A stretch of DNA of 64,000 nucleotides, from contig CM065802.1 in NCBI GenBank assembly GCA_033398695.1, positions 75,316,096 to 75,380,095 on the forward strand, in the 5' to 3' direction. Below the pieces are notes generated by a model that was not told where the DNA came from, did not search any database, and saw nothing but the letters and a program-made list of their open reading frames with translations. Position numbers and translations under genes: made by a program. Position 1 is the first letter of the stretch. Every line of letters begins with the position of its first letter. Origin of the DNA: Orobanche coerulescens. Its lineage: Eukaryota > Streptophyta > Magnoliopsida > Lamiales > Orobanchaceae. This document shows, in pieces, positions 956 to 58,430 of the stretch.

Positions 956-2603
956 CCACTTTAGGAGCAGGTGCAGACAAACAAGTCAACTACGAGTAGC
1001 GCACGCTAAGGTCGGAGACTTGCATATGCTAAAGAGAGTATTTACGTACATTATTGTATGGGGATTGCGTACGCAAATCACAATGCGGAGTAAGGCAGTA
1101 GCCTCTGGACTACGATAGCGCATGCTAACAAAGTCAGTTAGTGCACGCTATGGCAAGTAGCGCACGCTATCTAGTAATAGTAGTGCACGCTAATAATGTG
1201 CAGTATATATGTGCAGTTGGGGATTCTTCTTCATTTCGTCCATCTCTTCCTTTCATGCAATATAGAGTGTTCTTGGAGGATATCTTGGGGATCCAGACAC
1301 TTGATTATTGTGGGGTTGATCGTCCTTAACAACATTGGAGCTTGGAAGTGATTGAGAACGAATTCAACCTTGGGATTCAATCCACTCTTTGAGGAGGTAA
1401 TTACTCTTCACTTTGGAATTTCATCTTGGATTGTATATGATGTTCTTGAGTTAATAATCGTCATATATATGAGTTGATAAGTATGATTATGGGATGGATT
1501 ACCGAGTTTTGTTGATATTATTGCTGAAGTGTGGATGTTGATATGATTCGTGTGGTTTTGAATGGTGTTGTTTATCTTCAAGAGATATTGGTTAATATCT
1601 CCCTTCATTTCGGATTTTGACATTGTTGTTGATGATTAGTTCATATGATAATAGTTTATGGAGGTGTTATGATGATTCTTGGTATTCCACGAGAAGTTTG
1701 TTAAGGAAGATGATGACGTGATGACTTATATATTGGATTATGTTATGTTGTCATGAGCATGGTTAGGGAATCATAGTGTTCTTGGTAGTATTGTTGTGAT
1801 TCTTGATATTATGATGATATATGCCTTAGACTATGAGTTAGATGATGGCTTAGATGTTAGAACACATTGGATTATGTCGTTTGGTCGATTATGAATGTGA
1901 TTTCGGATTAATTGATGTTCATGAGAGACTCTTGAATTATATGGGATGATGAACATTTATAAGAAGTGTGGGTGTTTTGGATATGAATATGGAATATTCA
2001 TGTCTAGAGCTAAGTTACGTGTTTTGATATAAAATTCGTATAGGAATACGAATATGATTACGAGTTTGATGAAATTATTATTCATCTCTGACTTTGGAAG
2101 TCCACACGTATTGAACAAGTGTTCAAGTCGAATGATTGAATTGGTTGACAGCCTTAGAATATGATTATCTATAATGTTGAACTAACTGGAAGTTCGAATT
2201 GATGATGATCATCGGTAAATTTTAACTATGAATTTACAAGGAGGAACCTTGTTAATTCGTATTTAAGACTGAATTTGGAATCGATAACATTTAGACCCTT
2301 ATTATTAGTTTGAATTGGTTGTTGATATGATTATCGGATTTCGGCTCGTATTGTGGACATGAATTCATAAGTGTTTGAGTTGGATTGTTCAGACTGTGTT
2401 TAATCGAGATATTGTGGAACCGTTGGATTTGTGGATTGGTTATATTGATATTGATCGTTATCGAACTTGTTGTTTATTTATCTTTTTTTTTTTTACAATG
2501 AGTTTGATCGTGGATTATGACTGTTGTGTTGCGGTTGAGGTTGAAGAGTTCGTAGATTGCTTTGGTCAGGGCTGAGGAATTCGTAGACGAAGGCAATTGA
2601 ATT
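956..2603 (+). mobile_element. Gypsy LTR 'A', left part (U3 rest, promoter, leader)
   Basis: Decayed LTR with the same promoter layout as the other gypsy LTRs here: palindromes at 997-1192 and a TATA box at 1204. The section beyond 3603 is roughly 80% similar by eye to the G-II LTR (39477-41752) on the opposite strand, so A and G-II look like one family. The 5' edge is covered by the Tat-type LTR at 1-955. No open frame longer than about 70 codons and no recognisable protein occurs in 1300-2600. This stretch is T-rich LTR sequence. Confidence 0.6.
997..1210 (+). promoter_or_regulatory. Palindrome cluster and TATA box of LTR A
   Basis: Six 12-bp inverted repeats: TAGCGCACGCTA at 997-1008 and 1158-1169, TTACGTACATTA at 1042-1053, TAGCGCATGCTA at 1116-1127, TAGTGCACGCTA at 1139-1150 and 1181-1192. 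Eleven bases after the last one is TATATAT (1204-1210). A 14-bp motif, GCAGTAGCCTCTGG, near 1095-1108 recurs in LTR B and G-II. The layout indicates an RNA polymerase II promoter with a multi-site upstream element. The binding factor is unknown. Confidence 0.65.
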
Positions 2604-3602
2604 GGTAACTGTTGTGTCGAGATTTATACACCTCAACAGGCGATCGGCACAAAGACCGGGCGACCGAGCCAGAGTCAAATAGACCAAGGCAGACTTGCCG
2701 ATCGAAGGACCCAGAACAGGACCCAGCGCCGAGCGATCGACTGCCAAGGCGATCGTCTCCCAGCAACTAGCAATCGTCCCAAGTGCCCGATCATGGACGA
2801 CCGCCTCATGCCACGTAAATCCAACATCCGCCAAATCTGCAAAGGCCGAAACTCGAAATAGAGACCCACGTGCAGATCCGGAAAAGGCACCACAGGATAT
2901 GGCCCTTTGACCCCAGCCTGTCACCATGTTCTCACCTACCGACAGACCCGCCGAAAGGTCCAAGGTGGGACCTCCCGAGACAGCGACAAGAGACGCGTGT
3001 TGTCCTCTCATTGGTTCGCACAGCTGGCTGCCAGCAGCTGCTGCGGACTTTAAGGCAATCAACCCATGTGCTAAAGACGATCGCCCCTTTTTATAATACA
3101 GGAAAGGCGATCGCCCGTCAGGATTAAGACATCCCAGCTTCTCCTATAAATAGAAGGCTTCCTGCACATGGAAACGATTCTGCCTTTCTCTCGGATTTTC
3201 ACTCTGAAAACCTCTTAACCCAAAGACGATCGGCCGAATCAAGCATCACATCTCACTTGTTACAAGAACTCACAGAGCTTCAACTCTGGTTCTTCCGGCA
3301 ATCATCACCACTCAAGAGCAAGATAACTAGGGTCTTTTGCACTCATTGTAATTGTACTCTTACATTAATATTTGTATTACTTACTTCCCCACGGATGTGC
3401 ATGAGGCGGTCGTCCATGATCGGGCACTTGGGACGATCGCTAGTTGCCGGGAGATCGCCTTGGCAGTCGATCGCTCGGTGCTGGGTCCTGTTCTGGGTCC
3501 TTCGATCGGCAAGTCAGCCTTGGTCTATTTGACTCTGGCTCGGTCGCCCGGTCTTTGTGTCGATCGCCTGTTGAGGTGTATAAATCTCGACACAATAGTA
3601 AC
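2604..3602. mobile_element. Fold-back element made of inverted LTR ends
   Basis: A 989-bp insertion (2609-3597) bounded by the 5-bp duplication GTAAC (2604-2608 and 3598-3602). It starts like a Tat-type LTR (TGTTGTGTCGAG), contains a TATA box (TATAAATA, 3145-3152) and continues into R/U5-like sequence to about 3390. It then switches to a ~200-bp inverted copy of its own first 200 bases, about 95% identical by eye, ending CTCGACACAATA. Both termini are therefore the U3 end of the LTR. No complete coding region is present. The family is related to, but distinct from, the Tat LTRs at 1-955 and 28374. Confidence 0.85.
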
Positions 3603-5039
3603 AAGTTCATTGTATCTATATCGAGGCAAGTTATACTTGTTCAGTTTATAATATTTAATGAATGGTTTCAGTTTCATTTCATTTATAATTCATAAAGCAA
3701 TGATATATAAATGTAAATTTTCGGGATGATGGTTTGTATATTGTGCCCTAGTTTGGATTAAATAATAATGTATATGATTTAATTGTGTTTGATTGAAGAC
3801 GGAGATATGAATTAGCCTTGGCCTGTGATATGGAATGTCGGATATCGAAGATAGTTTATTGTATGGACATTGGTGTCGGGATGGTGGCTTATTGATATTA
3901 ATGGGCGGTACCTCATTCGAGATTATTCGAATAATAGTGTATTTGTTCAGGGATGTTGTTCATGGAAAAGGATATTATCTCCGGCATTGAGGTAATTTAA
4001 GTATTGTTCCATTATGAGGATAATTATTCTGGAAAATTGTTGTATATGTTGTATGTTGATGTTCCGTATGATGGGATTCATGTTGATTGTTTCGTTGAGG
4101 GATGCTGATCCCAGGACTGTTTGTATTGAGATCATTGATCGTGTTGATCATTCATTGGGGATGATGATCCCAGGGTTATTATTTGATTATCGATTGGTCG
4201 TGTCGACTTTTCAATGTCAGTTGTCATTGTTCACTTTAGTGAGTCTTTTGGTTCTTATTGGATATGTGATTCTTTGAGTTTCGTGGTCATGTTGCATCGT
4301 GACATATCTGGAGTCATATCTACGTGTCGATTGGTAGCCGGGCACACTATGGTCGTGCATGGATGTTTCCGCATTGGACTGCGCACACGAGACGTTAGTT
4401 CGTGAGGCTAATTAGGTACATGTCCCACGTATATCCTGGATTCTATATGGGGTGGACATGTGCACGAACACATTTCCGGATCAGGCGTACTGTGACGTCC
4501 ATCTTTGAGCCACAAGGATTAGTCATTCATCCTCCATTTATGGTTGGGTATGTTCGACGTGTTGCAACCAGTTGTTCATACGCCCGAGGGGTATGTCCGA
4601 CAGTTGGGGTTATTTCTTTGAGATCCATCTTTGTTGATCGTTTAGAGTTTATCATGTTGATGGTATTCTTGGTCGTTGTTGATCCTTTGTTGACTGTTTG
4701 GAGTTTATCATGTTGATGGCATTCTCGGACGTTGTTGATCCTTTGTTGATCGTGTTGGAGTTTATCACGTCGATGATATTCTCGGTAGATTTATTGGTTG
4801 AACATTGCTATTGATCATATAAGCATTCGGACTGTACGTCGATGTTTCAGGATATGTTATCATTGTTTTGTGGTAGTTGATCTACAAATATATTATGTGA
4901 TATTGGGTTTGATCCAGATTGAGATTTGATGGTGCAATCTGACGGACAGGATTTGGCACAAATAGTTCATTCCACACTTATGAGTTATGATGATGTTTTG
5001 GGGATTCTTGGTATTGTCTGAATACAGCACAGACGATTG
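3603..5039 (+). mobile_element. Gypsy LTR 'A', right part, and unassigned sequence
   Basis: Continues LTR A after the fold-back insertion. 4340-4560 matches the reverse complement of about 40230-40000 in the G-II LTR. I could not find the expected LTR end (…GGGTGTTACA) or a primer-binding site, so the right boundary is unclear. 4800-5039 shows nothing I recognise. A deletion has probably removed the LTR end, gag and most of pol before the pol remnant at 5088. Confidence 0.45.
4632..4792 (+). repeat. Three tandem repeats of about 55 bp inside LTR A
   Basis: Three diverged copies share a GTTGATC…GAGTTTATCA(T/C)G…GATGGTATTCT core. They start near 4632, 4676 and 4732. Confidence 0.7.
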
Positions 5040-5087: not shown

Positions 5088-5467
5088 TGTATGCCGATAC
5101 TCGTCGTCTACCATTGGAATTCGATTTTGGAGACCATGTTCTACTCAAGGTATCGCTGACCGAATGAGTTTTTCGCTCCGGAAAAAGGGGGAAACTTAGT
5201 CCGCGGTATATCAGACCGTTTGAAATTTTGGACAAGGTTGGAGACTTAGCTTATCGCTTGGCCTTACCACCAGCTTTGAGTCATGTCCATAATGTTTTTC
5301 ATATTTCTCAGTTGAGAAAGTACGTGCCGTATCCAAGTCATATTATCGACTATAGTGAGATTGATGTAGCCGAGGATATTACCTTTCCAGAGAGACCCAT
5401 GAAGATCCGGGAATTTTGTGAGAAACAGCCTCGGCATAAAAACATTCCGTTGGTTAAAGTGCAATGA
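5088..5467 (+). pseudogene. Ty3/gypsy pol, C-terminal end of integrase (remnant)
   Basis: The conceptual translation matches the end of a chromovirus-type polyprotein. After a YAD-type start comes the integrase C-terminal GDHVLLKV block, then GKLSPRYI and PFEIL. An open stretch from 5228 reads VGDLAYRLALPP, VHNVFHISQLRKY and PSHII, and stops with TGA at 5465-5467. A TGA near 5165 and a frame change break the first part. Everything upstream (gag, protease, RT, RNase H, integrase core) is missing. It lies directly before the purine tract and 3' LTR of the same element, as expected. Confidence 0.8.
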
Positions 5468-5740: not shown

Positions 5741-6023
5741 TAGCGCACGCTAGGCATGTGCTAACGCACGCTATTCGTGTTGAGTAGCACGCGCTAGCGT
5801 CGCCTGTAGCGCGCACTAAAGCATTGAGTTTGGCAGAGACAGAAGCTGGATTTTGTTCTCGGGACTAGCAGTTAGCGCACGCTATTGGTGTTGCGTAGCG
5901 CACGCTAAGGATGGGGTAGCACACGCCTGCTTCGTAGGTCAGTAGCCACTGGACTAATGGGTAACCCCGTTAGCGCACGCTAACTCTGAGGCGTAGCGCG
6001 TGCTAATTGAACGCAGTATTTAA
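5741..6023 (+). promoter_or_regulatory. Palindrome cluster and TATA box of LTR B
   Basis: At least eight copies of the 12-mer TAGCGCACGCTA or one-step variants lie at 5741, 5762, 5785, 5807, 5873, 5896, 5971 and 5994. The last ends at 6005, and TATTTAA (6017-6023) follows after 11 bp, the same gap as in LTR A. A CAGTAGCCACTGGAC motif lies near 5940. Confidence 0.75.
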
Positions 6024-14225: not shown

Positions 14226-14411
14226 AATTATAGCGCTGACTGCACAGTGTGCCGCGGCCCAGCCGAAGTGTGCCGCGTCACAGGGCCGAATCTGCCCCCA
14301 GTGATCGGCAGCGTGCCGCGGCCCGGACGGGTGTGCCGCGGCAGTGACTCGGCAGTGTGCCGCGGCAGTGACTCGGCAGTGTGCCGCGGCCCTGCCGGCA
14401 TGTGCCGCGGC
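14226..14411 (-). promoter_or_regulatory. Palindrome cluster and TATA box, G1 3' LTR
   Basis: Seven copies of GTGCCGCGGC, in full form the 12-bp palindrome GTGCCGCGGCAC, lie between 14249 and 14411. CTATAATT on the minus strand (14226-14233) follows 15 bp further on in the direction of transcription. Confidence 0.75.
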
Positions 14412-16656
14412 TCATGATACAGGCTGCTCGGCCAAAACTGGAAAATGAGTGTCTGAGCTATTTCGACCATAACTCTCTCGTCCGGACTCCGATTGACTTA
14501 CCGTTTGAACCATTGGAAAGCTAGCTTGATGCTCTATCAATTGTAAAGTTTCAGAATTTTTTTGACCTTATAAGCGCCGGTGGTGATCTTTCAAAGTCGA
14601 CCAAATGTACAAAAACGATACTCCTGGACAAAACAATAATTATTCAACATGCAGCGAAACACTAACGGACAACAACAACGATCCAAATCGAAAACGAACA
14701 CATAACAAAGCAAGACATACTATTAGCTCGACTTACGCAACGATAAGTCGTACCCGACGAACACCACAACACGGTACATCGTTCCGTACCCAACATAGGG
14801 GAAAATCTCAAGAAATCGCCAACAGAACAAAATGAACTGCGCAATCGACAAAAATTCAAAAATAACCGGAGCCGAGAATCTCGGGTATTACATTCTACCT
14901 TACTAAAAATAAGTTTCGTCCCGAAACTTAAAACAAGAGCAAGGCGATTCTAGATAACACACGTTATCTGATATTTACAGTGCACAAGAGCTCCATGCAG
15001 TACAGAGCTACTGCGGTCCGATTCAATACACAAGAATGTTTACGAAAAGCAACGAACATGAACCACTACGGTTGATAAATCCGAGCAGTACAACAACCCA
15101 AACACAAGTCCAACGTTGAACAAGAATTTAATTCCAATAACCTCAGATGTTTGAAAGATCAAATACGGAAACAATTTCCCAACACTTATGGAAATTTCGA
15201 AGTGGCCCAGATGTTCAATAATCACGATTACGAGAGCAAACAATAATGATTGGACAACGACGAACGAATAGCAATGATCGAACAACAACGATCAACTCTG
15301 AAGTTCACGCCTTAATCAAGACATTAATAAACTTGTAGGAACCACAAGGTGTTAATTTCGCACACGGTTCACAGGAAATCGATCCGAACTTGGAAAGATC
15401 ACAATGATATATAGATCAATTTGGGACAATATCAGAACTCGCTCGAATGACAAAGGTGAGAAACAACACAAGGTCAGAAGCACCAACTAACACAATCGAG
15501 TCGATACGATCGAACGAAATGGAAGTGAAAAAAAGAAGAAAAATATGGGTATTACATCATATCACTTTTAAAAGAGGTTTCGTCCCCGAAACCTAAACAA
15601 TGAGAACGAAGTGTTGGAATAGCAACCTTCCCGGCCATATCCTCTTGGTCCCGCATCTGATCTCCATGACCAACTGTACCGCCATCATGACCGCGTCCTC
15701 TGTCCCTCGGCATACGAAGCGAATTCTCACTCGATACGATGGCACAACTTCGCAAAAATAAATACTAAAGTACCAACTCAGCATGAGATATCACATAAGG
15801 TAACTAATAACAACTTGATAAGATAATCCACGAAGTATCCTTTTAAATGATATCATTTGAAAATCCTTAGATTTGTGTCCTCTACAAAGTAAAACTTTAA
15901 AAGTATTTTTGATACCACGGGTTGCTTCATCAAAACTTTTAAACAATAGACTTTAACCGTCTCATTTTAAAATCATTGGCTAAATAATATTTTCTGTGCA
16001 ACCGGCATTGTCAAAATCACCACGCTACTACACACCAGCATTACGTTAATAACAACAAGGTAGCTACGCAAGGTCATCAAACCATTCGTACATACTTTAA
16101 TCAATATAGGAAACTTTCTCAAATCCGAGTTTGAAGTTTACATCGAGTGAGATTTTTCATCTTTCACTATATATTTTTGAAAATAAATTCGAATTATGGT
16201 GTGAAAGATTTTTGATGTACTCCAATTATTTGAAAATACAACAACATGTTAAAATCATATTCGAAAATCCTCCCAACACTACATGAAAATCAACGACGGT
16301 AACATTATACAAAATGCCTACATGTACTTTAAAACAACTCTTTCATATACCATCGAGGTTTTATTTGAGAATCCAAGGCCGGCTTGCCAATTCCAAATAA
16401 TTTTCAAAGTATACACGGAGCCGCCGATTAATCGAACCGTCAAAACTTTGTGAAGTTTCCAGGAAAGTGTTTTTGAACACACACACAACAGACATAATTT
16501 ATCAATTCATCAAACACAATCAAATATCACCTAGCAATACGAAAAGTCTTAACACACATTCACGCACAACAGTTGTTATCACTAGACACCACGTAGAGAA
16601 TACAACTACAGGTGATTGGCAGCAAAAGTTAGACCTAACGGCTATAATGCGGTTCC

Positions 16657-16795
16657 ATAGCCTCTGCCCAGGTTGATTAGCGTGCGTTACAACAAAGATT
16701 AACGTGCGCTAAACACGCCACGTTAGCGCGCGTTAGGCTCGTACTAAGCCTGTGCTAACCGCTCTAATCACCAACATGATTGCAAACATATATGA
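16657..16795. promoter_or_regulatory. Orphan palindrome block inside G1
   Basis: Contains TTAGCGTGCGTTA, TTAACGTGCGCTAA and GTTAGCGCGCGTTA between 16677 and 16738, next to CATAGCCTCTG (compare CAGTAGCCTCTGG in LTRs A and B). A TATA-like ACATATATGAGG lies at about 16785-16796 on the plus side and GCATTATAGCC on the minus side, so orientation is uncertain. It is probably the U3 of an older LTR. Confidence 0.5.
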
Positions 16796-17665: not shown

Positions 17666-20636
17666 TGTAACACCCCCAGATCGAACCGGGAATATTACAC
17701 GCCGCAGACCCTCTCCGTGAGGATCCACCAGGCTAGACATCAAAACAACACATTACATTACATACTGACGAATAAAAATAACGAACCAATAGACCGATTT
17801 GGTCTTTCGTCACTGACTTACAAATAAAAATACATAAACTCATCCAGACTCATACCCACGCAAGGGTAAAATACTTACAACAACGAATAATAAGACAGCG
17901 GAAAAGACAATACAATGGACTTCGACTAACTTAACCCAAAACTGGTCTTCGTGTGATTAGTATCATTCATCTTTCATCATCCCTCGTACCGATCCTGTGA
18001 CTTGCTCCCGAAAACCAGCATGTACCTGGACACAATACAGATATCCACCCCCCGATTACTCGGGGGTTAGCAAAACTCCACTGTTTCGCTAGTGCAAGTA
18101 TAAAGTGCAAAAATGAGCCATACACAACACATTCCGAGAATACAACGAAAGACTTCCCGAGATATATTTAGTTAAAAATAGTTCAAGTCTTGAAAGTAGA
18201 AACGAAGCAAGTAAGCACTTTGAAAACATTTCCAAATCTCGAGAGTTTTGAAAACATTAGAAATTAAAAAGTTCTTAATTCCTCGAAAGTCATTTAGGGT
18301 CACAGCCCCAAAGTTCATTTTCCAAAATACAAATCCGTTAACAAAGCACGGGGTCCACGACCCATCCATTCCGGTCACAAAACACAGGGCCTACGACCCG
18401 ACCATCTACTACAATTCACTTACAAGGACACATTACACATAACACATTATTCTTATGCCATTCTAGCCAAGCACCAAGACTCGATATATAATGTCTCTCG
18501 ACCCCGAGCACAAAGCATTGTGATACTCCGGACAATATCCCAATTAACGAAAACATCAACATCATCCTCAAGATGAAAACTACACCTAGTAACCCACGAC
18601 CGTACCCCTTAGTATCGGCCCCCAGACGCCCCGTCGAACGCTCCGGGTGGGAAACCACTTCCGCGGCCGTACCCCTTAGTATCGACCCCCAGACATCCCG
18701 TCGGACACTCCGGGTGGAAGTTCAACCACACACGCACCCAAGTACACTTCCGTGGTCGTACCACTTAGTATCGAACCCCAGACGTCCCGTCGAACGCTCC
18801 AGGTGGAAGGAACAACACACACACACGTTCCAAAATCACAGTTGCAAACCACAAGCCTCGAAGGTCAATCACAATATATATAGTCGAGGTACCTTACTAG
18901 AATGGCCAGTTCATCCAACATATACTCACGACCAAGTAACGATACGATTCATGCTAGAATTTCGATGATGCAGCTAGCACCAATAACATAGCAACGAGGG
19001 AAAATACCTATCCAATCACGCCGAACGACACAATGACACAGGATCATCAATAGGCATATGTTCCATACATATCTCAAGGAAATGTTAAGCTATAAATCTA
19101 CAACGTCATAATCACATAAAACGATACCCCACTCATACTTAGACAAGCATATTTGACAACGAAATCATACGAGTCATCTTTTAAGGAAGTATTGAAAAGC
19201 ATATCAATTCCTTTAAAAGTTAATTATAGACATTCATAAATCACGTATCGTAAATTACCAACTAATATATCCACAAAACACGTAATGTATGGGCAAGATA
19301 CTTGCCTCGAATAACCACAACGCAGAGAATCGGCCGAAGTAGGTTGGCACGAACCGACTATGAACTTTCCGACTCCACCGAACGACAATCCGCAACAATG
19401 AACGAAAACAATAACAACGAAAATGAATTCCAAAGTACGACCCAAAGCCGCTGAATTCAAAGAACAAATGACGAAAGTTCAAGGATTTCCCCCAAAAAGT
19501 CGATTCGAAGGAAGTCAAGAAATATACTTCGATTCGACGAAGAACAATGGATTAAATGATGTTAAACACAAGAATACTAACAAGATTAATCATACCCATC
19601 ATGAATTAATAAACAATACGGAACGAATCAGACAAAAATGCAAAAACCCCCAAATTCAAGAATTTAGGGTTCTAAGAAGAGATTACCTCTTGAAGATCCA
19701 AACACTTTGATCCGAAAAACACGTGTTAGATCCACAATCCGAGCTTCACGATCGAAAGGAGATGAAGAAAATCAAACACCCAAGTGAAAGATGATGGGAA
19801 GTCTCCCCCCTCAAGCCCTCTCTCTCGTATGGTTGAAGAAAAGGAAGAAAATGAGTGAATCTCGCTGAAAAAACACAATTATAGAGCTGACTGCACAGTG
19901 TGCTGCAGCCCAGCCGAAGTGTGCCGCGGCACAGGGCCGAATCTGCCCCCAGTGATCGGCAGCGTGCCGCGGCCCGGACGAGTGTGCCGCGACAGTGACT
20001 CGGCAGTGTGTCGCGGCCCTGCCGGCATGTGCCGCGGCTCACGGTATAGAGGGGTTGGCCGATAATTGAAACATGAGTGTGCCGCGGCCCGGACGGGTGT
20101 GCCGCGGCAGTGACTCGGCAGTGTGCCGCGGCCCTGCCGGCATGTGCCGCGGCTCATGATACAGGCTGCTCGGCCAAAACTGGAAAATGAGTGTCTGAGC
20201 TATTTCGACCATAACTCTCTCGTCCGGACTCCGATTGACTCACCGTTTGAACCATTGGAAAGCTAGCTTGATGCTATATCACATTGTGAAGTTTAAGAAT
20301 TTTTTTTGACTTTATAAGCGCCGTTGGTGATCTTTCAAAGCCGACCAAATGCACAAAAACGATACTCCTCGACAAAACAATAATTATTCAACATGCAGCA
20401 AAACACTAACGGACAACACCAACGATCCAAATCGAAAACGAACACATAACAAAGCAAGACATACTATTAGATCGACTTACGCAACGATAAGTCGTACCCG
20501 ACGAACACCACAACACGGTACATCGTGCCGTACCCAACACAGGGGAAAATCTCAAGAAATCGCCAACAGAACAAAATGAACGGCGCAATCGACAAAAATT
20601 CAAAAATAACCGGAGCCGAGAATCTCGGGTATTACA
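17666..20636 (-). mobile_element. G1 5' LTR
   Basis: 2971 bp, nearly identical to the 3' LTR by eye, with the same tandem repeats (about 18601-18812) and hairpin (18049-18066). It is longer because the palindrome block is expanded (19900-20153). Confidence 0.9.
19877..20153 (-). promoter_or_regulatory. Expanded palindrome cluster and TATA box, G1 5' LTR
   Basis: Ten GTGCCGCGGC-type sites, two or three of them mutated (GTGCTGCAGC at 19900, GTGTCGCGGC, GTGCCGCGAC). A duplicated segment is separated by a ~30-bp spacer. TATA (CTATAATT on minus) is at 19877-19884. Seven sites are present in the other LTR. Confidence 0.75.
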
Positions 20637-20641
20637 GTCTT

Positions 20642-28368: not shown

Positions 28369-28373
28369 TCCTA

Positions 28374-34873: not shown

Positions 34874-35024
34874 TCTCGAATTTAGAAGAGGAGAAAATGA
34901 GTGTTTTCTTACCAAGGATCGAATCGATCGACGATCGGCAGTCAGATCTCCAGGAAAATTCTTCAGCGGTATTATCCTTTTTTCTCCGATAAAAAAGCGT
35001 AAGAGTGAGCACTGCAACCCTGCG

Positions 35025-35034
35025 CCTTTTTATA
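35025..35034 (-). promoter_or_regulatory. TATA box of the Tat1 antisense gene
   Basis: TATAAAAAGG on the minus strand, about 150 bp upstream of the antisense ATG at 34873. Position and sequence fit an independent RNA polymerase II promoter inside the element, separate from the LTR promoter. Confidence 0.55.
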
Positions 35035-39471: not shown

Positions 39472-39476
39472 CCATT

Positions 39477-41752
39477 TGTAACACCCCAAAAGGCGGCTAT
39501 TAGAGTGACGTGGACCCCACACTGGGACCCACCAGGCGATACCAAAATACAGATTAAATATATATTACATTGTGATACCGAACCACAATAAATAGTCATT
39601 ACTCTGATTAGGAGTTTATAAATAGTATGGCCAATAGCCTTAACATACACAGGATCTAAATACAAGTATAACCCATATGGAGATGGAATATACTTCAAAT
39701 AACAATACAATCGGTTAATAGTTTAAATGAAGCAGAAAACAACATTACATGGTTTTCAAGCATAACCGAACAACAAAAGATTTGGGGGGACCTAATTAGT
39801 ATCCTTCGAACCCTTTGTCGTCACCATGCTCTTCCCGTGCCATGCCTTTTCCTCGACCTAAAATACAACACAAGTATTTCGCCCAAACCACAGGGTCAGA
39901 TATACATGATAAATGATTCTCCAGACATTATACAATTTACATATATTAGATCACAAGGAAACATCCCGACTATTGAACATACCCCTCGGGCGTATGAACA
40001 ATCAGTCACAAACCGGCGAACATATCCAATCATACATGGACTATGAACAACCAAACAATATGGATCAAGATGGACATCACAATACGCTCGATCCGGAAAT
40101 ATGTCCATGCACATGTCCACCCCGTATACAGAATCCAGAATATACGTGTGACAATGTACCTAATTAGCCTCACGAACTATGTCTCGTGTGCACAGTCCAA
40201 TATGGAAACATCCACGTATGACTATATATGTGCCTAGCTAAAAATCCTACACAATAACCAATCGGCATGCATATGTGATTCCAGATATGTCACGATACAA
40301 CATGACAACGAATTCAATAAATAACGTGTCCAATTAAGGATCAAGAAACTCACCGAAGTGACAATAAGGATCAAAGAAATCAACGATTCAAAGGTGATGA
40401 ACTTGGGAATGCAATCCCACGGTGAAAACGAAAACATAATCAAGAACAATATCAAATTACGAATCACATATTCATAAGTGTTTGATATACATGAAACGTA
40501 TAACCATCACAAGAATTCAATCATCATTATAAACAAGCAAGATAACTTGCCTCAATTCCGTAGGTGAAAGACAGTCCTTCTCCAAATGATCAAACGGACG
40601 GTATCCTCGATTAAATACTCAATCGAACAAGCAACCTTGAATGAAACATAATTCATTCAATAATACATTCACATAATATTGATATCAATTCGTAGGAAAA
40701 CGAATAATTCATTCTATTCCAATGAACATTCTACCGATTATTGATGAATTTCAATACATATGGTTTGTCTTCCACAAATCGGAATACTATAATAAAATGC
40801 CCTTTTAATACTCTTGTTATCACTATAAATAAGTTTATACATTAAATACCTTCGATTCGCCATTAACAATCAGATTAATCAAGTTCTTTAACATCTACAC
40901 CCTTTATTACACAAGGATCGTTGAGAACTAACATTATCACCAATAATTAATAATATCTTCCTAAGAACATTATCAACTTATTTCAATACTAGGTGTAGTA
41001 TACCATATCACTAACATCATAAATACGAAAATATAGAGTAGAATCGCACAACATACCTCCAGAAACGAAGAAAAACACCAAAACTACAAGAACACACTCC
41101 AAGCTTCAAGAACACCTTCTAAACTCCCAATCAACAAGCTTCAACCCAAGATGCAAGGCTCAAATACAAGTTAAAAGAGGGTATAATCGGTCTAGGGAGG
41201 CAGAGGGACGATAATTGGAGAGAAAAACCAAGGTTAGAACGTGCAAATGAAACACACAAGCTGTTTTTTATAAACTGCACAGTTTGTTACGTATGTTATA
41301 ACATGAAGATAACGTACGTTAATCCCTTTACGTATGCTACACCTAAGATGTTACGTACGTAATCTGTCTCCAGAGGCTACTGCCTCAAAATACCAACCTC
41401 ATTACGTACGTTATAGCCTCAGCATTACGTACGTAATGTACGTCAACTTGGCTGCCTCGAAAGGGCTAAAATATCCGGATCATGTCCGGGCCCCCATGCC
41501 AAAAGTTGAGATCGGATAAGATTCCCAGCATTATGTACGTAACCAGTACCTCATTACGTACGTAAAGCCAATGCATTAGCATACGTTAACTTAAAACTAT
41601 AGCGCACGTTAAACACAGAAAACCTAGCCCAAAAATGTAACAATCTACGCAACGTCAAGAAATCAACCACAATGCGAATAGCATGATTACAAAAATACTC
41701 AAATTGTCTGAATAATACAACGGTAGATAAGAAATTACTGTCAAATATTACA
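39477..41752 (-). mobile_element. G-II 3' LTR
   Basis: 2276 bp, TGTAATATTTG (41752) to GGGGTGTTACA (39477) on the minus strand. Same family as LTR A (956-5039). 39480-41250 is non-coding LTR sequence. I do not see the CCCC…GGGG hairpin of the other gypsy LTRs here. Confidence 0.88.
41267..41613 (-). promoter_or_regulatory. Palindrome cluster and TATA box of G-II
   Basis: Many TTACGTACGTAA-type palindromes (complete ones near 41353, 41402 and 41425; variants TTACGTATGTTA, TAACGTACGTTA) and a GCGCACGTTA site at the far end. The TATA box TTTATAAA is at 41267-41274, 12 bp from the nearest palindrome. GCAGTAGCCTCTGG occurs on the minus strand near 41383. Confidence 0.75.
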
Positions 41753-41799: not shown

Positions 41800-43797
41800 C
41801 AACTCGGGGTACTTCTCTTACATTCTTCTCTCGGTCTCCCACGTTGCCTCCTCGACTCCGTGTCGTGACCACTGAACCTTCAGCAGGGGAATCGTCTTGT
41901 TCCTCAATTATTGGATCCTCCTATCAAGTATCTGTATGGGACGTTCCTTGTAAGAATGATCATCGGCTAACTCGATCTCTTCGAACTAAAGTATGTGGCT
42001 CGGATCAGCAACATACTTCCTCAGTTGGGAGACATGAAACACATTATGAATCCGACTCAGAGCTGGTGGCAATGCCATACGATAGGCCAGATCGCCTACT
42101 CATTCCAAAACCTCAAACGACCTAATATACCTCGGGCTCAGCTTGCCCCTCTTCCCAAAATGAAAAACACCTCGAGTAGGGACACCTTCATTAGCACGTG
42201 GTCGCCAACCTCGAACTCAAGTGGTCATCGACGGTTGTCTGCATAAGATTTCTGCTGGCTTTGAGCCGTTAACAAATGACTACTAATCAGAGCGATCTTC
42301 TCACAGGCTGCTAACAACATATCAGGTTCCATACCCAGAGATTCATACAAGTCGTCCCAATACAAAAAGGGACCTACAATGACGGCCATACAATATTTCA
42401 TTAGGTTCCATCTGAATCAAAGCGTTCCAACTATTGTTGTAAGTGAATTCCACCAAAGGCAGTTGGGCTTCCCAATCGTCCTTCCAATCAAGAGTGCACG
42501 CCCTCAACATATCCTCTAGAGTTTGGATAGTCCTCTCAGATTGACCATCAGTCTGCGGATGGAATGCCGTACTGAAGTTCAACTGCGTACCCATCGCACG
42601 ATGGACTGCTCTCCAGAAATGTGACACAAATCGCCCATCACGATCTGATACAATACTCTTGGGGGTACCATGTAACCTTACAATATCTTTAATAATCAGC
42701 TGGGCCAATCTCTCGGGTCCCCACGTGTCTTTAATCTCCAAAAAATGGGCTGATTTGGTCAGACGATCCACAATCACCCAAATCGTATTCATCCCTCGAT
42801 GAGTCGTCGACAAACTAGTGATAAAATTCATTGATATGTCCTCTTATTTCCACTCGGGATTCGGGATCGGTTTCAGCATTCCTGTGGGTCGCCGATGCTC
42901 AATCTTAACCTGCTGACAGGTTAAACATCTCAAAACGAACTCTGCAACTTCACGTTTCATATTCCCCCACCAATAACATTGCTTCAAATCCTTATACATC
43001 TTACTAGATCCCGGGTGAATGGAGTACGGGGTAGCATGAGCCTCTCTCAGGATAGAATTCCTCAATTCTTCGTCTGCGGGTACACAAACTCAATTACTGA
43101 AGCGTATCAATCCATCCTCGTGGATCACAAATCCAGGGGCTTTCCCTTGAGTTACTTCATCCCGAACTCGAGATAAGAATGGGTCTGTAACCTGCTTCGA
43201 TCTGATTATATCATCAAGGGATGATGAAATCTCAAGTGTACAAAGTTGTCCCTGAATACGCTGTAACCAAACTTCAATTTCTGGCCTCAAAAGATCTAAC
43301 TGCAATTCTCTCTGAACTGTCAAGTGGCTAAGCATCTGCTCCTGTACTGTCATACGACTCAAGGCGTCAGCAACCACATTTGCTTTGCCCGAGTGATAAA
43401 GGATCTCAATATCATAGTCTTTTATTAGTTCTAGCCACCTTCTCTGTCTCATGTTCAACTCCTTCTGAGTAAAAATGTATTTCAGGCTCTTGTGATTAGT
43501 AAAAATCTGACAGGTAACTCCATACAAATAGTGACGCCAGACCTTTAAAGCAAATACCACGGTTGTTAGTTCCAAGTCATGGGTCGGATAGTTAACTTCA
43601 TAGGGTCGCAACTGTCTCGATGCATAGGTAATCACTTTCCCCTCCTGCATCAACACACATCCAAGGGCCTGTCTCGACGCATCACTATACACCACGAATC
43701 CTCCCGTTCCTTTTGGTAAAACCAAAATTGGTGCTGAAACCAATCGACTTTTGAGTTCATCAAAACTCTGTTGACATGCCTCTGAGTTGAATATCAA
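41800..43797 (-). pseudogene. pol: G-II pol remnant: RNase H, zinc-binding domain, integrase
   Basis: Minus strand, right to left. RT/RNase H at 43090-43797 shows [67 protein letters not shown] and [10 protein letters not shown]. The HHCC region at 42844-43065 shows HPGSSKMYKDLKQCYWW and CLTCQQVK. The integrase core at 42343-42831 shows VIVDRLTKSAHFL, IVSDRDGRFVSHFW and FHPQTDGQSERT, the DD35E signature of this family. Degraded C-terminal pol runs to about 41800. Frame breaks near 43080, 42835 and 42340 inactivate it. The RT half is lost to the internal deletion. Confidence 0.9.
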
Positions 43798-43817
43798 TAA
43801 ACATTAATTAAGTGTAA

Positions 43818-46793: not shown

Positions 46794-47013
46794 ATAACGT
46801 ACGTTATACATGCTTTCTTGCGTGCGCTATCGGCACCTTCATAACCTACGTTATACCTTAGCGTTAACGTACGTTATGGCCTTCAGCATATTGGGCAGAT
46901 TGTTCTGCCGAGCCATTATGTATGCTAACTCCTGCGTGTTACGTACGTAACGAGTGTAACGTACGTTAACATCAGCATGTTAACATACGTAATGGAGGAA
47001 CAGGTTTTATAAA
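46794..47013 (+). promoter_or_regulatory. Palindrome cluster and TATA box of G-III
   Basis: ATAACGTACGTTAT (46794-46807), TTAACGTACGTTAT (near 46863), TTACGTACGTAA (46939-46950), TAACGTACGTTA (46957-46968) and TTAACATACGTAA (46980-46992). A CGTGCGCTAT half-site lies near 46820. The TATA box TTTATAAA is at 47006-47013, 13 bp after the last site. Confidence 0.78.
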
Positions 47014-47910: not shown

Positions 47911-48337
47911 ACCCTTTGTGGGGAAATTTGTTTTATAAATTTCAGGTTATGTTTAGCCGGACGAGCGGGCATTGGGACAGTACGAGGATGCTATCCAGGG
48001 TTGTTGACATGTGCAAGCGAGTTTCTTTATTTTCCGTTGTCCATTTCAATATGGTTGTTTACCAACTTGTGAACTAATAGACGTACTCGAGTACTTAGGG
48101 GCTTTTGAATTTGCAAAGTGTATTGAGTTGTCCGTTATGTTTTCGTTGGAGTATTGTGTTGCTTGATTGACCGGTCAAACCGGGTGGATTTTTATTGTTT
48201 TGCGTCTTTTTGATGTGGTGTTGTTGCGTCGATTCCGTGAGTTGATGAGTGAAGTTGATTACCTAGCCTGGTGGGTCCTATGTGGGGGTCCATGGCGTAG
48301 TTACATTCTCGGGATTTCTTGGGGGTGTTACAGAAAA

Positions 48338-48569: not shown

Positions 48570-49700
48570 ATGGATGCTGGGAGAGGCCGAGATAGGGGTC
48601 GCGGCTGTGGTCGTGGACGCGGCCGTGGTCGTGGACGCGGCCGGGGACGTGGGGCAGCCAGTGAGGCGGCCACGTCACACAATTTTGGGGCTGGTAGTAC
48701 TGATGGTCATCAGAGCCATAGTGCTACTCAGGAGGGCGCAACCGGCGGTAAGGCCGATCTTGGTGTTGCAGCTGTGATGCAACAAATGGTGAACCAGATG
48801 GCTGCGATAGCTCAGGCGGTTCAGAACCCGACTCCGGCCCATGCTACTTGGGACGGAGCAGACCGTTGGCTTCAGGATGTCATCAAGATGCATCCTCCTT
48901 AGTTTTCGTGGGCTTCAGACACGATTGGTTGAGAGGGGTGGATCAAAGAGATATCCAAGGTCTTTGTTGCCACCAACTGTCCCGAGGATCGCAAGGTCCC
49001 TATTGCCCAGTACTTTCTAACTGGGGACGCTACTGACTGGTGGGAGGCTGTTGAGCCTAAGGACCATGCTGCTTCATGGGTAGAGTTCAAAGATCTAATG
49101 GAGACCGAATAATGCCCGTGGCCAGTTAAACAGGCTCGAGTCCATGCTTTCTATGATGCTCAGCCTCGGGATATTCCTGTTTACCAGGCTATTGCTGATT
49201 ACAACAGGAAGTTGGGCTTCGTGAAGGCCCAAGTTAGAGAAGAGAGCGACAAGATTTTCCACTTTTCCAGACGGATGAAACTGAAGATTCGTGACTACAT
49301 GTTTGGGCTTGCCTGCACCACCTTGAAGGATTATCAGAGTAGAGCTCTTGCATACGATATGTCTCTGACGGCCAGTGAGGCGGCACGTGAGAGCAAGAAA
49401 CAGAAGTCCACCGGAAATTTTTTGGGCCACAATGGTGGAGGTCAGCAGAAATCTCAGCCTGCTAACTTTCCCGCTAATGGTGGTCCAGCTCGTTCTACTG
49501 GTTGTTTCCGTGGGGCTGCCAGTACTCCTTCCCATGATGTGAAGTGTTTTAATTGCGGCCCACCGGGCCACGTCAGTCGTATTTGTCTGAGTCCTTTGCT
49601 GACATGTAATCAGTGTGGCCAGTCGGGACACTAGGCTGCTTTCTTTGCTGAGAGAGAGAGAACCCTTGGCGCCCAGACTTCCTTCCCAGCGCCTAAGGAA
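48570..49700 (+). pseudogene. gag: G-III gag
   Basis: Starts at ATG 48570 (MDAGRGRDRGRGCGRG) with an Arg-Gly-rich N-terminus of about 25 residues, usual for plant Tekay/Del gag. The capsid region continues in the same frame (QMVNQMAAIAQAVQN, VFVATNCPEDRKVPIAQYF, ATDWWEAVEPKD). Stops lie at 48900-48902, near 48928 and near 49110. An open part follows at 49212-49634 (FHFSRRMKLKIRDYM, ALAYDMSLTASEAARESKKQ). It ends in a CX2CX4HX4C zinc knuckle (CFNCGPPGHVSRIC) and a second knuckle broken by a stop (CNQCGQSGH then TAG). Leader 48350-48569 is untranslated. Nucleocapsid and capsid function is expected from the family; this copy cannot make it. Confidence 0.88.
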
Positions 49701-49706
49701 CCGAGT

Positions 49707-51048
49707 GTGAACCAGAAGTCGTTTACTCCGCAGCCTCCGCCGAGTGCCAGTCGAGGAAGAGGTCGGGATCAGCATGCTAGATGGGGAGCCTCCAATGTCG
49801 GATTCGCTCATCCGCGAGTTTACGATATGAGGAGGGCCGATGATCCAGCAGCCACCGTGGCCACATGTATCATTCATATACAGTCTCATCCTGTCAGTGT
49901 GCTTTTTGATTCGGGTGCTACGCATTCATTCATTTCTCTGGAGTGTGTGTGGTGTTTGAGTCTCGACTGTTTGATGCCTTGTGAGCCTTTCATCGTTAAG
50001 ATTCCTAGCGGTTATAGGATCGTTGGTGATCAGGAGGTCCGAGACTGTTCTGTGTTCATTTGTGAGAGGGCTTGACTCTCTAATCTTATTTTTGTGAGTA
50101 TTGAGGGTGAAGATTTGATTCTAGGGGATGATTGGCTCGAGTGGCATGGTGCAATCATGAACTACTGCACGAGGATCATCACCATGTTATCCGAGGACGG
50201 CACCGTGCACTCTTTCGCGAGGCGAAAGAGAAACCAGAAGTTCGTGATTAATGCCTTGAAGGCGATGAGGCTCCTGCGGAAGGGGTGTACTGGTTATTGG
50301 TGCTATGCCTTGAAGGAGGGGGATGGTGGGGTCGAGTTTTCATCGATTCCAGTCATTAGTGAGTTCTCTGATGTCTTTCCTGATGAGTTACCGGGGTTGC
50401 CACCGGACCGTGAGGTTGAGTTCGCTATCGAGTTAGAGCCAGGTGCGGCTCCGATTTCAAAGGTGCCGTATCGCATGGCACCTTCAGAGATGGCCGAGTT
50501 GAAGAAGCAGTTGAGTGAGATTCTTGAGTCAGGGTATATTCGACCGAGCGCTTCACCTTGGGGCGCACCAGTTCTATTTGTGCAGAAGAATGATGGTTCA
50601 CTGTGTTTATGTATCGACTACCGCGAGCTAAACAAGGTGACCATCAAGAACAAGTATCCCCTGCCGAGGATTGATGACTTGTTTGATCAGTTGCAGTGAG
50701 CTGCGGTATTCTCAAAGATTGAATTGAGAGCGGGGTACTATCAGCTTCGGGTGAAGGAGTCCGATGTCCCGAAAACAGCTTTTCGGACGAGATACGGACA
50801 TCATGAGTTTGTGGTTATGCCCTTCGGGTTGACTAACGCGCCGGCGGTGTTCATGCAGTTGATGAAGAAGGTCTTCATTGAGTATTTGGATAAGTGTGTC
50901 GTCGTCTTCATTGACGACATTCTTATCTATTCGAAGAATGATGAGGAGCATGCGCATCATATGCGTGTGACGTTAGACATTTTGAGGACCGAGCGACTCT
51001 ATGCGAAGTTCTCGAAATGTGAGTTCTGGCTGAAAGAGGTGTTGTTTC
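49707..51048 (+). pseudogene. pol: G-III pol: protease and reverse transcriptase, truncated
   Basis: Protease is at 49850-50075 with the aspartic motif LFDSGATHSFIS. After a TGA (50073-50075) the frame resumes at 50094 ([16 protein letters not shown]). The RT follows ([60 protein letters not shown]), a TGA at 50697-50699 (Q-*-A, a W or Q codon lost), then [36 protein letters not shown] and the catalytic [13 protein letters not shown]. It stops at KCEFWLKEV where copia C5 inserted at 51049. RNase H and integrase of this copy are outside the window or lost. Ty3/gypsy chromovirus type. Confidence 0.9.
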
Positions 51049-52528
51049 TGTTAGGGTTGTATACGTCAAAGCATACTTTATGCTTGTATTACCTAATTTC
51101 CCGGTCTTTATCTATGAGAATATTTAATTCATTTATCACATGTTTTGTATATTTATTCACGCTATGGTTATGCAAATGTAGTCTAAATTACTTTATATTG
51201 TAGATAATATGGTGTGTCGTGTCACACAGAAAATCACATTATCGGTTCCTTATATAGTAATATTTAGTTCACAGCCTATATAACATTAGACTTTTATGTA
51301 AGAGGTTGTAGTATATGCTTGAGACTGGTTGGTCTTGACCACTAACATATATTAGCGTATTCGGTATACGTTGAACAGGATCGAGGTGAGATAGATTCTT
51401 CTGTACTGACTATAAGAAGAACGTACATCTCGGACAATTATTATTTCTTAATTCTAGTGATTAATATTTAATTATATATATTTAATATTTATTGCTTTGA
51501 TTTATCATGGGTGAGAGCCACAATGATTGACTCAATATGCTCGATATTTTGGACAATATTATTATTTATATGATAATTAATATTATAGCTAGAAATCGTG
51601 TCTGACTCGGGTTGATCATGTCCCTTGAGGCACTCGAAATGATTATTATATTAAACCCTGCAGGTGGAATTAATTTTCCGATATAATAATAAAGGTCGAG
51701 TGGTATAGTCATGTATAATATATTAATTAATTAAAAGCTGTCAGTAGCTTAAATTAATTAATGGACATGGAATATCTTAAATACGGGAAATAATTAATTC
51801 AAAAAGGAGCCCAATTTCGTAATTTAGGATTTTGGTAGGAAGTGCAATATCAACCTTTTAGTGGACTAAGTTGATATTAATAGAGTCTTAATATTAGGAA
51901 GAGTCCTAATATTGGAAAGAATATACCTATTGGGAGTCCTTACCATATCCTCCTTAAGGTCCCTAGAGTAGCCCAAAACACCTATAAATAGGACATTGTG
52001 TTGGCCAATTTTTACATCATTATTGAGGCAAGAAAACCGATTTTTATGTGTGTGTTTAATTGTGGATCTTGACTTGTATCTTGGATTCCATAATTTAGTT
52101 AACACAATATTTTTCTAAAATACTGAAAATATTCAAGAAAAATAGAGAAAACAAAAATCGTGAGTTTCTTGAGAAAAAATTTCGGCCGACCCCTTGCTGT
52201 CCAAGTTTGATCCGGTAGATTGTTGCCCACACGATATCCGGACATAGGCGGGATATACTCTAGAAGATCTTGAGGTAGAAATACAAGAAGATCGGAGAGG
52301 AGTACGAAGAGGAGATAAAACGACCAAAAGGGATTTCCTACCACTTCGCGTCAAAGGTATAAATTACCGACTCCCATGCGTAAATATGTGTATTTAATTG
52401 TTTGTTAATATGTTTAGTTAATTAATTGACAAGCCTAAATAGATCCGATTTTCATGTTGATTAGTTTATAAAACCTTTCATAAAGTAATTTCCACCAACT
52501 AGCTTCCGCTGCGCTTTATATACCAACA
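51049..52528 (+). mobile_element. Copia C5 5' LTR (plus strand)
   Basis: TGTTAGGGTTGTATAC…TATACCAACA, 1480 bp. TATA segment CCTATAAATAGG at about 51981-51992. Same family as the C1-C4 LTRs but opposite orientation. Left flank GTTTC (51044-51048) is the candidate target duplication; its partner is not in the window. Confidence 0.92.
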
Positions 52529-54650: not shown

Positions 54651-54664
54651 TAGTCAAAACATGT

Positions 54665-57255: not shown

Positions 57256-58245
57256 ATATCCACATATTCACACAAATAATATATCACACTAAGGATATCC
57301 GAAAATTCACCCAAAGGCAACAAACACAAAGCACGACACTAATGTCAAATCACAACGTACCGAAATGAGATAATATATGCATATATATTATCAAAGCACA
57401 ACAACAACACCAAGCATATTCATAGGGTTCACTTAACCATTCACGAGACGCAACATTCACAAAACACACGCGTTTTGAAAGTGAGCCTTTAACGAGGCTA
57501 AACCAAATCCTTGAAAGTTCATTTCAAACAACCAAACAAACACATTTAGATGATCACCGATCATTACATTCACAAAACAAGAAATGTATGGGCAAGGTAC
57601 TTGCCTCAAAACCACGATCGCAACGAAACGACGGATGGGATGTGGTCGAACAGCCCCGAACCCCGAACACTATCAAGAACGCGATAGCACCACGAGTACT
57701 ACGAGAATAACACCACATGAATTATCAATCACCAAACGGGATTCAACTCGGAATCCTCAAGCACCTATAATCCTCCGGAAGGAACAATAAAAACAACGAA
57801 GATACGATTACAAAGAGAATCAAGGTAAAAAACAATGGAAATCCCACCAAACTATCGAAGGAAAACTCATTGAGACATTTAATCGAACACTTAACGCTCG
57901 ATAACTCCCAAGAACACTCGAATCACCAATCGAGTTGAACAAACTCGAAATACGGATATACAACCCATAGAATATGATTAATAATGTTCAATAACATCAA
58001 TCGATTCATGAAAATCGGACGAACAACGAAAATCAAGAAGGAAATCTCGATAGTCAAATCTAGGAGATTTCAAGAAATTACCTCGATCCGACGAAGAACA
58101 AAGATTAGATGTTGTTATAATCAACACAAGCCTTCAAAAAGATGTTGTTCTATGATGCTCCCGATCAAAACCCTCAATTTCTATCGAAGGATCGCGAAAA
58201 ATGAAGAAAAAAGTGGAAATGGCCGAGTGACCCGGTGCCCAGGCC

Positions 58246-58430
58246 TTAAATAGTCGGTCACTGCCGAGCGCTTACGGCCGTAATCGGCCATGGCCTTACG
58301 GCCGTAACCAGCCATCCCGACCCAACTGCCCAAAACTGCCGGCAGCGTTATGTACGTTACCAGTCAGGGCTTACGTACGTAACATCCCTTACGGCCGTAA
58401 CTACCGGACCATTGCGGCCGTAACTCGGCC
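58246..58430 (-). promoter_or_regulatory. Palindrome cluster and TATA box of G-IV
   Basis: TTACGGCCGTAA at 58272-58283 and near 58295 and 58388, TTACGTACGTAA near 58371, a TTATGTACGTTA variant near 58348 and a half-mutated GCGGCCGTAA near 58423. The TATA box is TATTTAA on the minus strand (58246-58252), 19 bp from the nearest palindrome. Confidence 0.75.

What the first reader, a model, noticed from the sequence alone, without database searches (positions are those of the whole stretch)
997..58430. Every gypsy LTR promoter here carries a cluster of 12-bp palindromes whose sequence changes between families while the layout stays
Seen directly in six LTR types: A (997-1192), B (5741-6005), G1 (14249-14411, 19900-20153), G-II (41287-41613), G-III (46794-46992) and G-IV (58272-58430). 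Each has 5-10 sites ending 11-19 bp before the TATA box. Cores differ: TAGCGCACGCTA (A, B), GTGCCGCGGCAC (G1), TTACGTACGTAA (G-II, G-III), TTACGGCCGTAA (G-IV), with some LTRs mixing two. All have a symmetric centre containing CG. Coordinated turnover of sites within an LTR, with fixed spacing to TATA, suggests binding sites of a dimeric factor that change together between families. Alternatively they may be methylation-symmetric elements used by or against the host. ACGT-containing sites fit plant bZIP factors; the CCGCGG and GGCC cores do not. I know of no description of this.
Basis: seen in the sequence. Interest (0 to 1): 0.78.

Follow-up and report, generated by a model that had tools for sequence, protein, structure and literature searches.

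The report
CpG palindrome arrays in gypsy LTRs
The promoters of several old plant jumping genes in this stretch each carry a row of short, nearly mirror-symmetric DNA sites just before the start signal; in some families the spacing is kept while the letters change, which looks like a docking array for a paired regulatory protein and resembles arrays known from another class of jumping genes.

Summary
A motif-free scan finds 43 near-palindromic 12-mers with at least 4 copies within 400 bp; 100 shuffled windows gave none. 41 of the 43 lie in arrays of gypsy-type LTRs. Corrections: many sites are not perfect palindromes (1 in A, 0 in B, 0 in G1a, 1 in G1b), and the CpGs sit in the arms, not at the centre. 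A, B, GII, GIII and GIV share one degenerate motif, TWRCG-NN-CGYWA (27 exact hits, all in arrays; shuffles mean 0.47). G1 (GCCGCGGC) differs. A and GIII agree in 7 of 7 site intervals (about 23-23-23-51-23-18-23), GII in its proximal five, although flanking letters match A's at chance level; B and GIV have other layouts. Sites are alike within LTRs and differ between them (0 of 2000 permutations). Best reading: a U3 enhancer array for a dimeric, probably host, factor. Closest known kind: palindromic repeated-motif boxes of Copia Sireviruses (PMC2829016). New variant of a known kind; there are no binding or expression data.

The parts
997..1192 (+). Array A: 8 sites, mostly TAGCGCACGCTA type; intervals 23,22,23,51,23,19,23; TATATA at 1204
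1094..1109 (+). GGCAGTAGCCTCTGGA box inside the 51-bp gap of array A
5741..6005 (+). Array B: 8 sites (9 with a decayed one at 5917), TAGCGCACGCTA type; LTR starts at 5582; TATTTAA at 6017
5938..5953 (+). GTCAGTAGCCACTGGA box (2 mismatches) in the last gap of array B
16678..16735 (-). Array X (not in the finding): TAACGCGCGCTA, TAGCGCACGTTA, TAACGCACGCTA at 24 and 22 bp; no LTR end or TATA assigned
14249..14413 (-). Array G1a: 7 GCCGCGGC-core sites in the 3' LTR 12022-14892; TATA at 14232
19900..20155 (-). Array G1b in the 5' LTR 17666-20636, with an extra ~115-bp duplicated block; TATA at 19883
41287..41611 (-). Array GII: 10 sites, TTACGTACGTAA/TAACGTACGTTA type; LTR 39477-41752; TATAAA at 41272
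41369..41384 (-). GGCAGTAGCCTCTGGA box in the 51-bp gap of array GII
46795..46992 (+). Array GIII: 8 sites; intervals 23,24,23,51,23,18,24; LTR 46267-48332; TATAAA at 47008
58272..58423 (-). Array GIV: 6 sites, four TTACGGCCGTAA type and two TTACGT/TAACGT type; LTR 58965-55924; TATTTAA at 58252
28402..28886 (+). Retand-type 5' LTR (28374-29464): 7 sites within 3 mismatches of AGGCGATCGCCT; TATAAA at 28902
35424..35908 (+). The same 7 site positions in the 3' LTR (35396-36486); two have lost the CGATCG core
444..927 (-). 6 of these sites in a reverse Retand-type LTR copy (1-955)
2638..3116 (+). Diverged Retand-type LTR: sites better kept than flanks
42343..43803 (-). GII internal: RNase H, integrase zinc-binding and a weak integrase core hit, in gypsy order
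49113..51203 (+). GIII internal: zinc knuckle, protease (RVP_2), reverse transcriptase (RVT_1)
5168..5467 (+). B internal 3' end: Tf2-1-like SH3 domain of the integrase C-terminus
34100..35029 (-). Antisense ORF with Transposase_28 (PF04195) in the Retand-type element

Best explanation
The arrays are the U3 enhancer of gypsy LTR retrotransposons. Each 12-bp site is a dyad of two half-sites (TWRCG/CGYWA in the Tekay-like families) bound by a dimeric, sequence-specific, probably host, DNA-binding factor. Several dimers sit about 23 bp apart, in three families on a shared template with one 51-bp gap, and lead directly into the TATA box, so that bound factor helps recruit the transcription machinery. 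Shown: clustering, position, near-dyad symmetry, shared spacing in A, GII and GIII, within-LTR likeness and between-LTR change. Inferred: that a protein binds, that it is a dimer, that it is host-encoded, and that site letters changed together because the factor or its specificity changed.
For: Non-random clusters. Just upstream of TATA in 8 of 8 LTR copies measured, one of them of a separate Retand-type lineage. Intervals agree within 2 bp between A and GIII (7 of 7) and within 1 bp between A and GII (proximal 5 of 5), while 6-bp flanks match at 22-31% between A and the other two. Flanks of the sites within A, GII and GIII are no more alike than shuffled, in B only one side borderline (37/500), so those sites were not copied with their spacers as recent tandem units. 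Left-right covariation between LTRs. In one pair of Retand-type LTRs, sites match 72/84 vs 307/436 elsewhere, and CpGs in sites are kept 13 of 14 vs 14 of 29 outside (Fisher p 0.006). Host rather than element factor: no accessory ORF was recognised in the Tekay-like internal pieces, and by eye GII pol and the polypurine stretch run up to the LTR.
Against: No binding, chromatin or expression data. Per-site symmetry within an LTR is only marginal (446 of 10000), and the arm CpG positions do not covary. A/B centres and G1 outer letters are asymmetric. B and GIV do not share the A/GII/GIII layout; Retand-type sites are irregularly spaced. 23 and 18 bp are not multiples of the 10.5-bp helical turn. 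One factor does not obviously bind TWRCG-NN-CGYWA, GCCGCGGC and GGCGATCGCC. The site definition used for searches was derived from the same data. Everything is from one 64-kb window, and the Tekay-like families are related, not independent. Only 40 ORF pieces were scanned with Pfam, of truncated elements.
Confidence: 0.6

Rival explanations
1. The arrays act as RNA or small-RNA elements: U3 repeats that pair with each other in the transcript give hairpins that feed siRNA silencing, as proposed for maize Sirevirus palindromes.
For: RNA folding is more stable than shuffles in 7 of 9 arrays tested (z -2.9 to -6.0). The Sirevirus precedent is described in papers of which I saw passages (PMC5311732, PMC10760457).
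Against: Arrays A and X show no excess (z 0.0 and 0.3). Zero-loop 12-bp dyads are poor single hairpins; pairing is expected from any repeated palindrome. It does not predict a fixed place before TATA or kept spacing. It may be a consequence rather than the function.
Confidence: 0.15
2. A VANC-like self-recognition system: an element-encoded DNA-binding protein reads the family-specific array and protects or activates only its own family, so motif and protein co-evolve.
For: VANDAL elements have family-specific motif arrays that evolve together (PMC5735166 and PMC10398659, passages). The Retand-type element has an antisense PF04195 ORF, a domain suggested to bind DNA (PMC11963269, passages), and CGATCG is enriched in the whole element (15 vs 3.1 internal, 7 vs 0.3 in the 5' LTR).
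Against: No accessory ORF recognised among the Tekay-like pieces looked at, where the clearest turnover is seen; those elements are truncated and not every ORF was scanned, so this is weak.
Confidence: 0.12
3. By-product of repeat dynamics: a CpG palindrome was amplified by template switching or unequal exchange during reverse transcription, with no binding factor.
For: G1 arrays are partly tandem: flanks alike, 24-bp units, a ~115-bp duplicated block in one LTR only. GIV flanks are mildly alike on one side (11/500), X and B borderline on one side (30/500, 37/500). X also reads as a 22-bp tandem pair.
Against: Flanks in A, GII and GIII are not alike; layout is shared between A and GII/GIII whose flanks match at chance level; CpG sites are kept better than flanks in the one Retand-type pair tested.
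Confidence: 0.08
4. CpG-symmetric methylation elements used by or against the host, with methylation itself as the function.
For: Arms contain CpG; 17 of 18 changes at the 86 arm positions are CG to TG/CA. CpG observed/expected is higher in the array than in the rest of the LTR for GII, GIII and GIV (1.45 vs 0.94, 1.67 vs 1.24, 1.34 vs 1.10).
Against: It is lower in both G1 arrays (0.97 vs 1.26, 1.02 vs 1.22). Methylation alone needs neither 12-bp dyads nor kept spacing.
Confidence: 0.05

Closest known systems
Sirevirus repeated-motif (RM) boxes (Ty1/copia), PMC2829016
   Same: Palindromic motif, mostly with CpG, 3 to 14 copies per 3' LTR, clustered in the upper half of the LTR just before a TATA box, sequence differing between families.
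   Different: Here in gypsy elements (Tekay-like and Retand-type); no CGG-CCG signature except the CGGCCG inside GIV; a spacing template shared between three families, which the section and passages I read do not report.
VANC target motif arrays of VANDAL DNA transposons, PMC5735166 and PMC10398659
   Same: Dense short motifs in non-coding DNA that change together between related families.
   Different: There the motif (YAGTATTAY) is not described as palindromic, lies in tandem repeats, and is bound by a protein the element encodes; here most spacers are unrelated and no such protein was recognised for the Tekay-like families.
NAC transcription factor sites, PMC4081100
   Same: TTACGTA, frequent in GII and present in GIII and single sites of A and GIV, equals the core TTNCGT[G/A]; NAC proteins bind as dimers.
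   Different: Palindromic NAC sites use CGT-N7-8-ACG; here the halves abut. B and G1, and most A and GIV sites, do not fit the core.

Membership tests
Sirevirus RM boxes | Carried by Ty1/copia Sireviruses | tested here: not met
   GII and GIII internals are gypsy type: RNase H then integrase, RVP_2, RVT_1
Sirevirus RM boxes | Palindromic motif clustered upstream of TATA in the LTR | tested here: met
   definition from PMC2829016 section 9. Many A, B and G1 sites are imperfect
Sirevirus RM boxes | CGG-CCG core signature | tested here: not met
   Only GIV has CGGCCG; others TWRCG-NN-CGYWA, CCGCGG or CGATCG. In the paper Tnd-1 also lacks it
Sirevirus RM boxes | Array forms a CpG island | tested here: inconclusive
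   CpG o/e 0.97-1.67, GC 0.42-0.72 in the five arrays measured; no island caller was run
Tekay/Del chromovirus | Gypsy gene order with integrase after RNase H | tested here: met
   GII 43803 to 42343 minus strand (the integrase core hit is below its cut-off, E 0.0015). A, X, G1 and GIV are placed by LTR similarity only
Tekay/Del chromovirus | Chromodomain at the integrase C-terminus | tested here: inconclusive
   B ORF hits SH3_Tf2-1 only; a chromodomain-like end is seen by eye and from recall, no Pfam hit
Tekay/Del chromovirus | Reverse transcriptase groups with Tekay | not tested
Retand lineage | Antisense PF04195 ORF between pol and 3' LTR | tested here: met
   34100-35029 minus, just before the 3' LTR, E 4.1e-6; definition from PMC11963269 passages. 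Pol itself was not found
Retand lineage | LTR 315-1194 bp, internal 7.4-12.9 kb | tested here: inconclusive
   LTR 1091 bp fits, internal 5.9 kb is short; no RT found in the ORF pieces tested
VANC/VANDAL-type system | Element-encoded protein binding its own motif array | not testable with these tools
   No candidate recognised in Tekay-like pieces; PF04195 ORF in the Retand-type element only
NAC palindromic site | CGT-N7-8-ACG spacing | tested here: not met
   Halves abut in TTACGTACGTAA; definition from PMC4081100 passages

The most novel reading that the evidence does not exclude
Gypsy LTR retrotransposons of two lineages carry a family-specific promoter 'address': an array of dimer sites, of fixed geometry in at least three families, whose letters are replaced together between families through a race with host silencing or with a factor of the element's own, so that each family is switched on separately. 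The geometry is the conserved trait; the letters are the variable key.
Probability: 0.22. Interest if true: 0.78.

Novelty: new variant of a known kind. Interest (0 to 1): 0.52.

Why it matters
If it holds genome-wide, palindromic promoter arrays are not a Sirevirus speciality but a recurrent design of plant LTR retrotransposons. Kept spacing with changing letters would give a direct test of how element families escape or acquire host regulators, and a practical handle for finding LTR promoters too diverged to align.

Tried and rejected
Helical phasing: the 23-bp step suggested two turns, but 18- and 23-bp intervals do not fall on one face; dropped without a formal test. Perfect-palindrome count for the whole window (50 vs about 16) is inflated by AT-rich words; not used as evidence. 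bZIP (ACGT core, by recall) and NAC sites: fit GII, GIII and single sites of A and GIV only. Simple tandem repeat: Tandem Repeats Finder reports only the G1 and X arrays. Insertion targeting of palindromes (PMC6911290, passages) concerns target sites, not arrays. Copies elsewhere: two related-protein scans of viral contigs confirmed no relative, two array patterns found none, the GIII LTR has no match in plasmids. Two other pattern scans gave 20 phage or bacterial stretches, a few with iteron-like TTACGTACGTAA repeats; I take these to be unrelated. The RNase H piece has at least 7999 relatives (capped), the PF04195 ORF two; neither names the plant. An LTR start at 15556 (minus) shows no array before 14893, but that fragment's true length is unknown, so it neither supports nor refutes 'every'. 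Copia LTRs were not delimited, so they are not a control. No structure was predicted.
Full report
What was checked. The window is 64 kb of nested plant-type retrotransposons; no organism is named. Gypsy and copia domains are found by Pfam in 40 ORF pieces scanned, out of 87 ORFs of 100 aa or more listed plus shorter ones; not every ORF was scanned. Five Tekay-like LTRs could be delimited by TG starts and GGGGTGTTACA ends: G1 5' LTR 20636-17666 and 3' LTR 14892-12022 (minus), GII 41752-39477 (minus), GIII 46267-48332 (plus), GIV 58965-55924 (minus); B starts at 5582, its end was not found, and A is cut at 956 by a reverse Retand-type LTR. 'Tekay-like' rests on gypsy domains in GII and GIII, an integrase SH3 in B, LTR or internal similarity among families (68-79% blocks) and recall; no tree was built.

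Is it more than chance? Yes. Region by region, near-palindromic 12-mers exceed 1000 dinucleotide shuffles (weakest is A, where 12 of 1000 reach the observed count). The real window has 43 centres with 4 or more copies; 100 windows shuffled in 1-kb blocks have none and never exceed 3 copies. Of the 43, two (7397, 7402) lie in an AATCG microsatellite; the other 41 lie in LTR arrays: A 2, B 7, G1a 7, G1b 7, GII 5, GIII 5, GIV 5, and three in Retand-type LTRs (916, 28402, 35424). Array X has three copies and stays below this threshold.

One motif, not four. A, B, X, GII, GIII and GIV sites are forms of TWRCG-NN-CGYWA. It has 27 exact hits in the window (A 3, B 5, X 3, GII 6, GIII 5, GIV 5), none outside arrays; 200 shuffles give 0.47 on average, at most 3 (the motif was fitted to the same data). 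Between families the inner dinucleotide and arm positions 2/11 and 3/10 change. G1 is different: 14 hits of GTGCCGCGGC or its complement vs 0.045.

Layout. With sites called at up to 2 mismatches from the degenerate motif (43 sites in 6 LTRs, a number unrelated to the 43 above), intervals in promoter direction are A 23,22,23,51,23,19,23; GIII 23,24,23,51,23,18,24; GII 23,23,23,106,23,51,23,18,23; GIV 23,18,23,52,24; B 21,23,22,66,23,75,23 (a decayed site at 5917 splits the 75); X 24,22. Thus 26 of 37 intervals are 21-24 bp. A and GIII agree in 7 of 7 intervals within 2 bp, GII in its proximal 5 within 1 bp. GIV has similar intervals in another order and B a different plan, so the template is not universal. 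6-bp flanks at the aligned sites agree only 22-31% between A and GII or GIII (42-44% between GII and GIII); the sites themselves 64-85%. A and GII share an exact GGCAGTAGCCTCTGGA box in the 51-bp gap and B has it with 2 mismatches; a fourth match with 3 mismatches lies outside the arrays at 61776. In all 8 LTR copies measured (A, B, GII, GIII, GIV, G1a, G1b, R5) the last site starts 23-31 bp before TATA, and a CAG ends 9-12 bp after the last site in each, against 174 of 2304 (7.6%) positions in the 300 bp upstream (noticed first, tested after).

Turnover. Mean difference between sites is 2.46 within an LTR and 3.92 between LTRs; 0 of 2000 label permutations reach this gap. For A/GII, A/GIII and GII/GIII, sites at the same position are not closer than sites at different positions (p 0.48, 0.83, 0.21), as expected if all sites in an LTR change together, but n is only 6 per pair. 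Half-sites change in step: 68 of 86 symmetric pairs at positions 2-11 and 3-10 vs 44.6 when right halves are dealt across all LTRs (0/10000), but 62.3 when dealt within LTRs (446/10000), so the symmetry signal is mostly at family level; positions 6-7 give 29 of 43 vs 20.2 (3/10000) and 26.3 (666/10000); the CpG positions 4-9 and 5-8 show no covariation (70 of 86 vs 69.8). Flanks of sites within A, GII and GIII are no more alike than shuffled; B and X are borderline on one side (37/500, 30/500); GIV is mildly alike on one side (11/500) and G1 on both (4/500, 0/500).

A second lineage. The element 28374-36486 has LTRs of 1091 bp, a gag hit near its cut-off and an antisense Transposase_28 ORF, as in Retand elements (PMC11963269, passages seen). 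Its U3 holds 7 sites within 3 mismatches of AGGCGATCGCCT (shuffles 0.32, 0 of 1000 reach 7), irregularly spaced (95,16,21,27,283,31), the last ending 15 bp before TATAAA. Against a diverged LTR at 2604-3616, site letters match 72 of 84 and the rest 307 of 436; CpGs of sites are kept 13 of 14 vs 14 of 29 elsewhere (p 0.006; one pair, and the site word was chosen after looking at these LTRs). This hints at constraint where methylated CpG would normally decay fastest. CGATCG is however enriched throughout this element, so its array is less specific to the promoter than the Tekay-like ones.

Other properties. 68 of 86 arm CpG positions are intact, 17 are TG or CA, 1 other. Folding as RNA is more stable than shuffles in 7 of 9 arrays and not in A and X.

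Known work. Section 9 of PMC2829016 and passages describe Sirevirus RM boxes: palindromic, 8 to 32 copies per element, 117 of 127 3' LTR copies in the upper half of the LTR, before a conserved TATA, called specific to Sireviruses as against classic retrotransposons. Bousios 2016 on these palindromes is not held; I know it by citation and recall. Searches for the 12-mers themselves (4 papers, none by title or abstract on transposons), for Tekay with palindrom (11 listed), and for LTR palindromes near promoters (one search showed 15 of 92) listed no paper that by title and start of abstract describes such arrays in gypsy LTRs. Most of those papers were not opened, and the library lacks most subscription journals, so this is not proof of absence.

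Verdict. A real, promoter-linked palindrome array in gypsy elements of two lineages, with shared geometry in three families, closest in kind to Sirevirus RM boxes. Most likely a dimer-binding U3 enhancer. The binding step is inferred.

Noticed in passing
9235-12021, 20635-28373, 36539-39477: Copia-derived sequence (RVT_2 hits) repeated head to tail about every 3.4-3.6 kb at about 88-93% identity, with the G1 and Retand-type elements inserted into it.
   Followed up: partly
1201-1203, 6014-6016, 14240-14242, 19891-19893, 28896-28898, 41275-41277, 47001-47003, 58261-58263: A CAG ends 9-12 bp after the last palindrome, before TATA, in all 8 LTR copies measured, including the Retand-type one; background 7.6%.
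   Followed up: partly
29465-35395 and 59500-63999: CGATCG is enriched along the whole Retand-type element and a related one (15 vs 3.1; 14 vs 2.6 expected); part of the second lies in a 14-bp tandem repeat.
   Followed up: partly
19961-20194: The 5' LTR of G1 has a ~115-bp duplicated array block whose copies are 86% alike while the two LTRs are 96-97% alike; so the block probably predates insertion and was lost from the 3' LTR.
   Followed up: no
L005:5761-5886; L015:500-560: TTACGTACGTAA-like sites repeated at about 22-23 bp in a viral contig and in a rumen Spirochaetaceae MAG contig (read); paired sites also hit in L016-L018 and L020. Looks like iterons or an operator array, probably convergent.
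   Followed up: partly
34100-35029: The antisense Transposase_28 ORF has only two relatives in the search, the better from Orobanche gracilis (63% over 32%).
   Followed up: no
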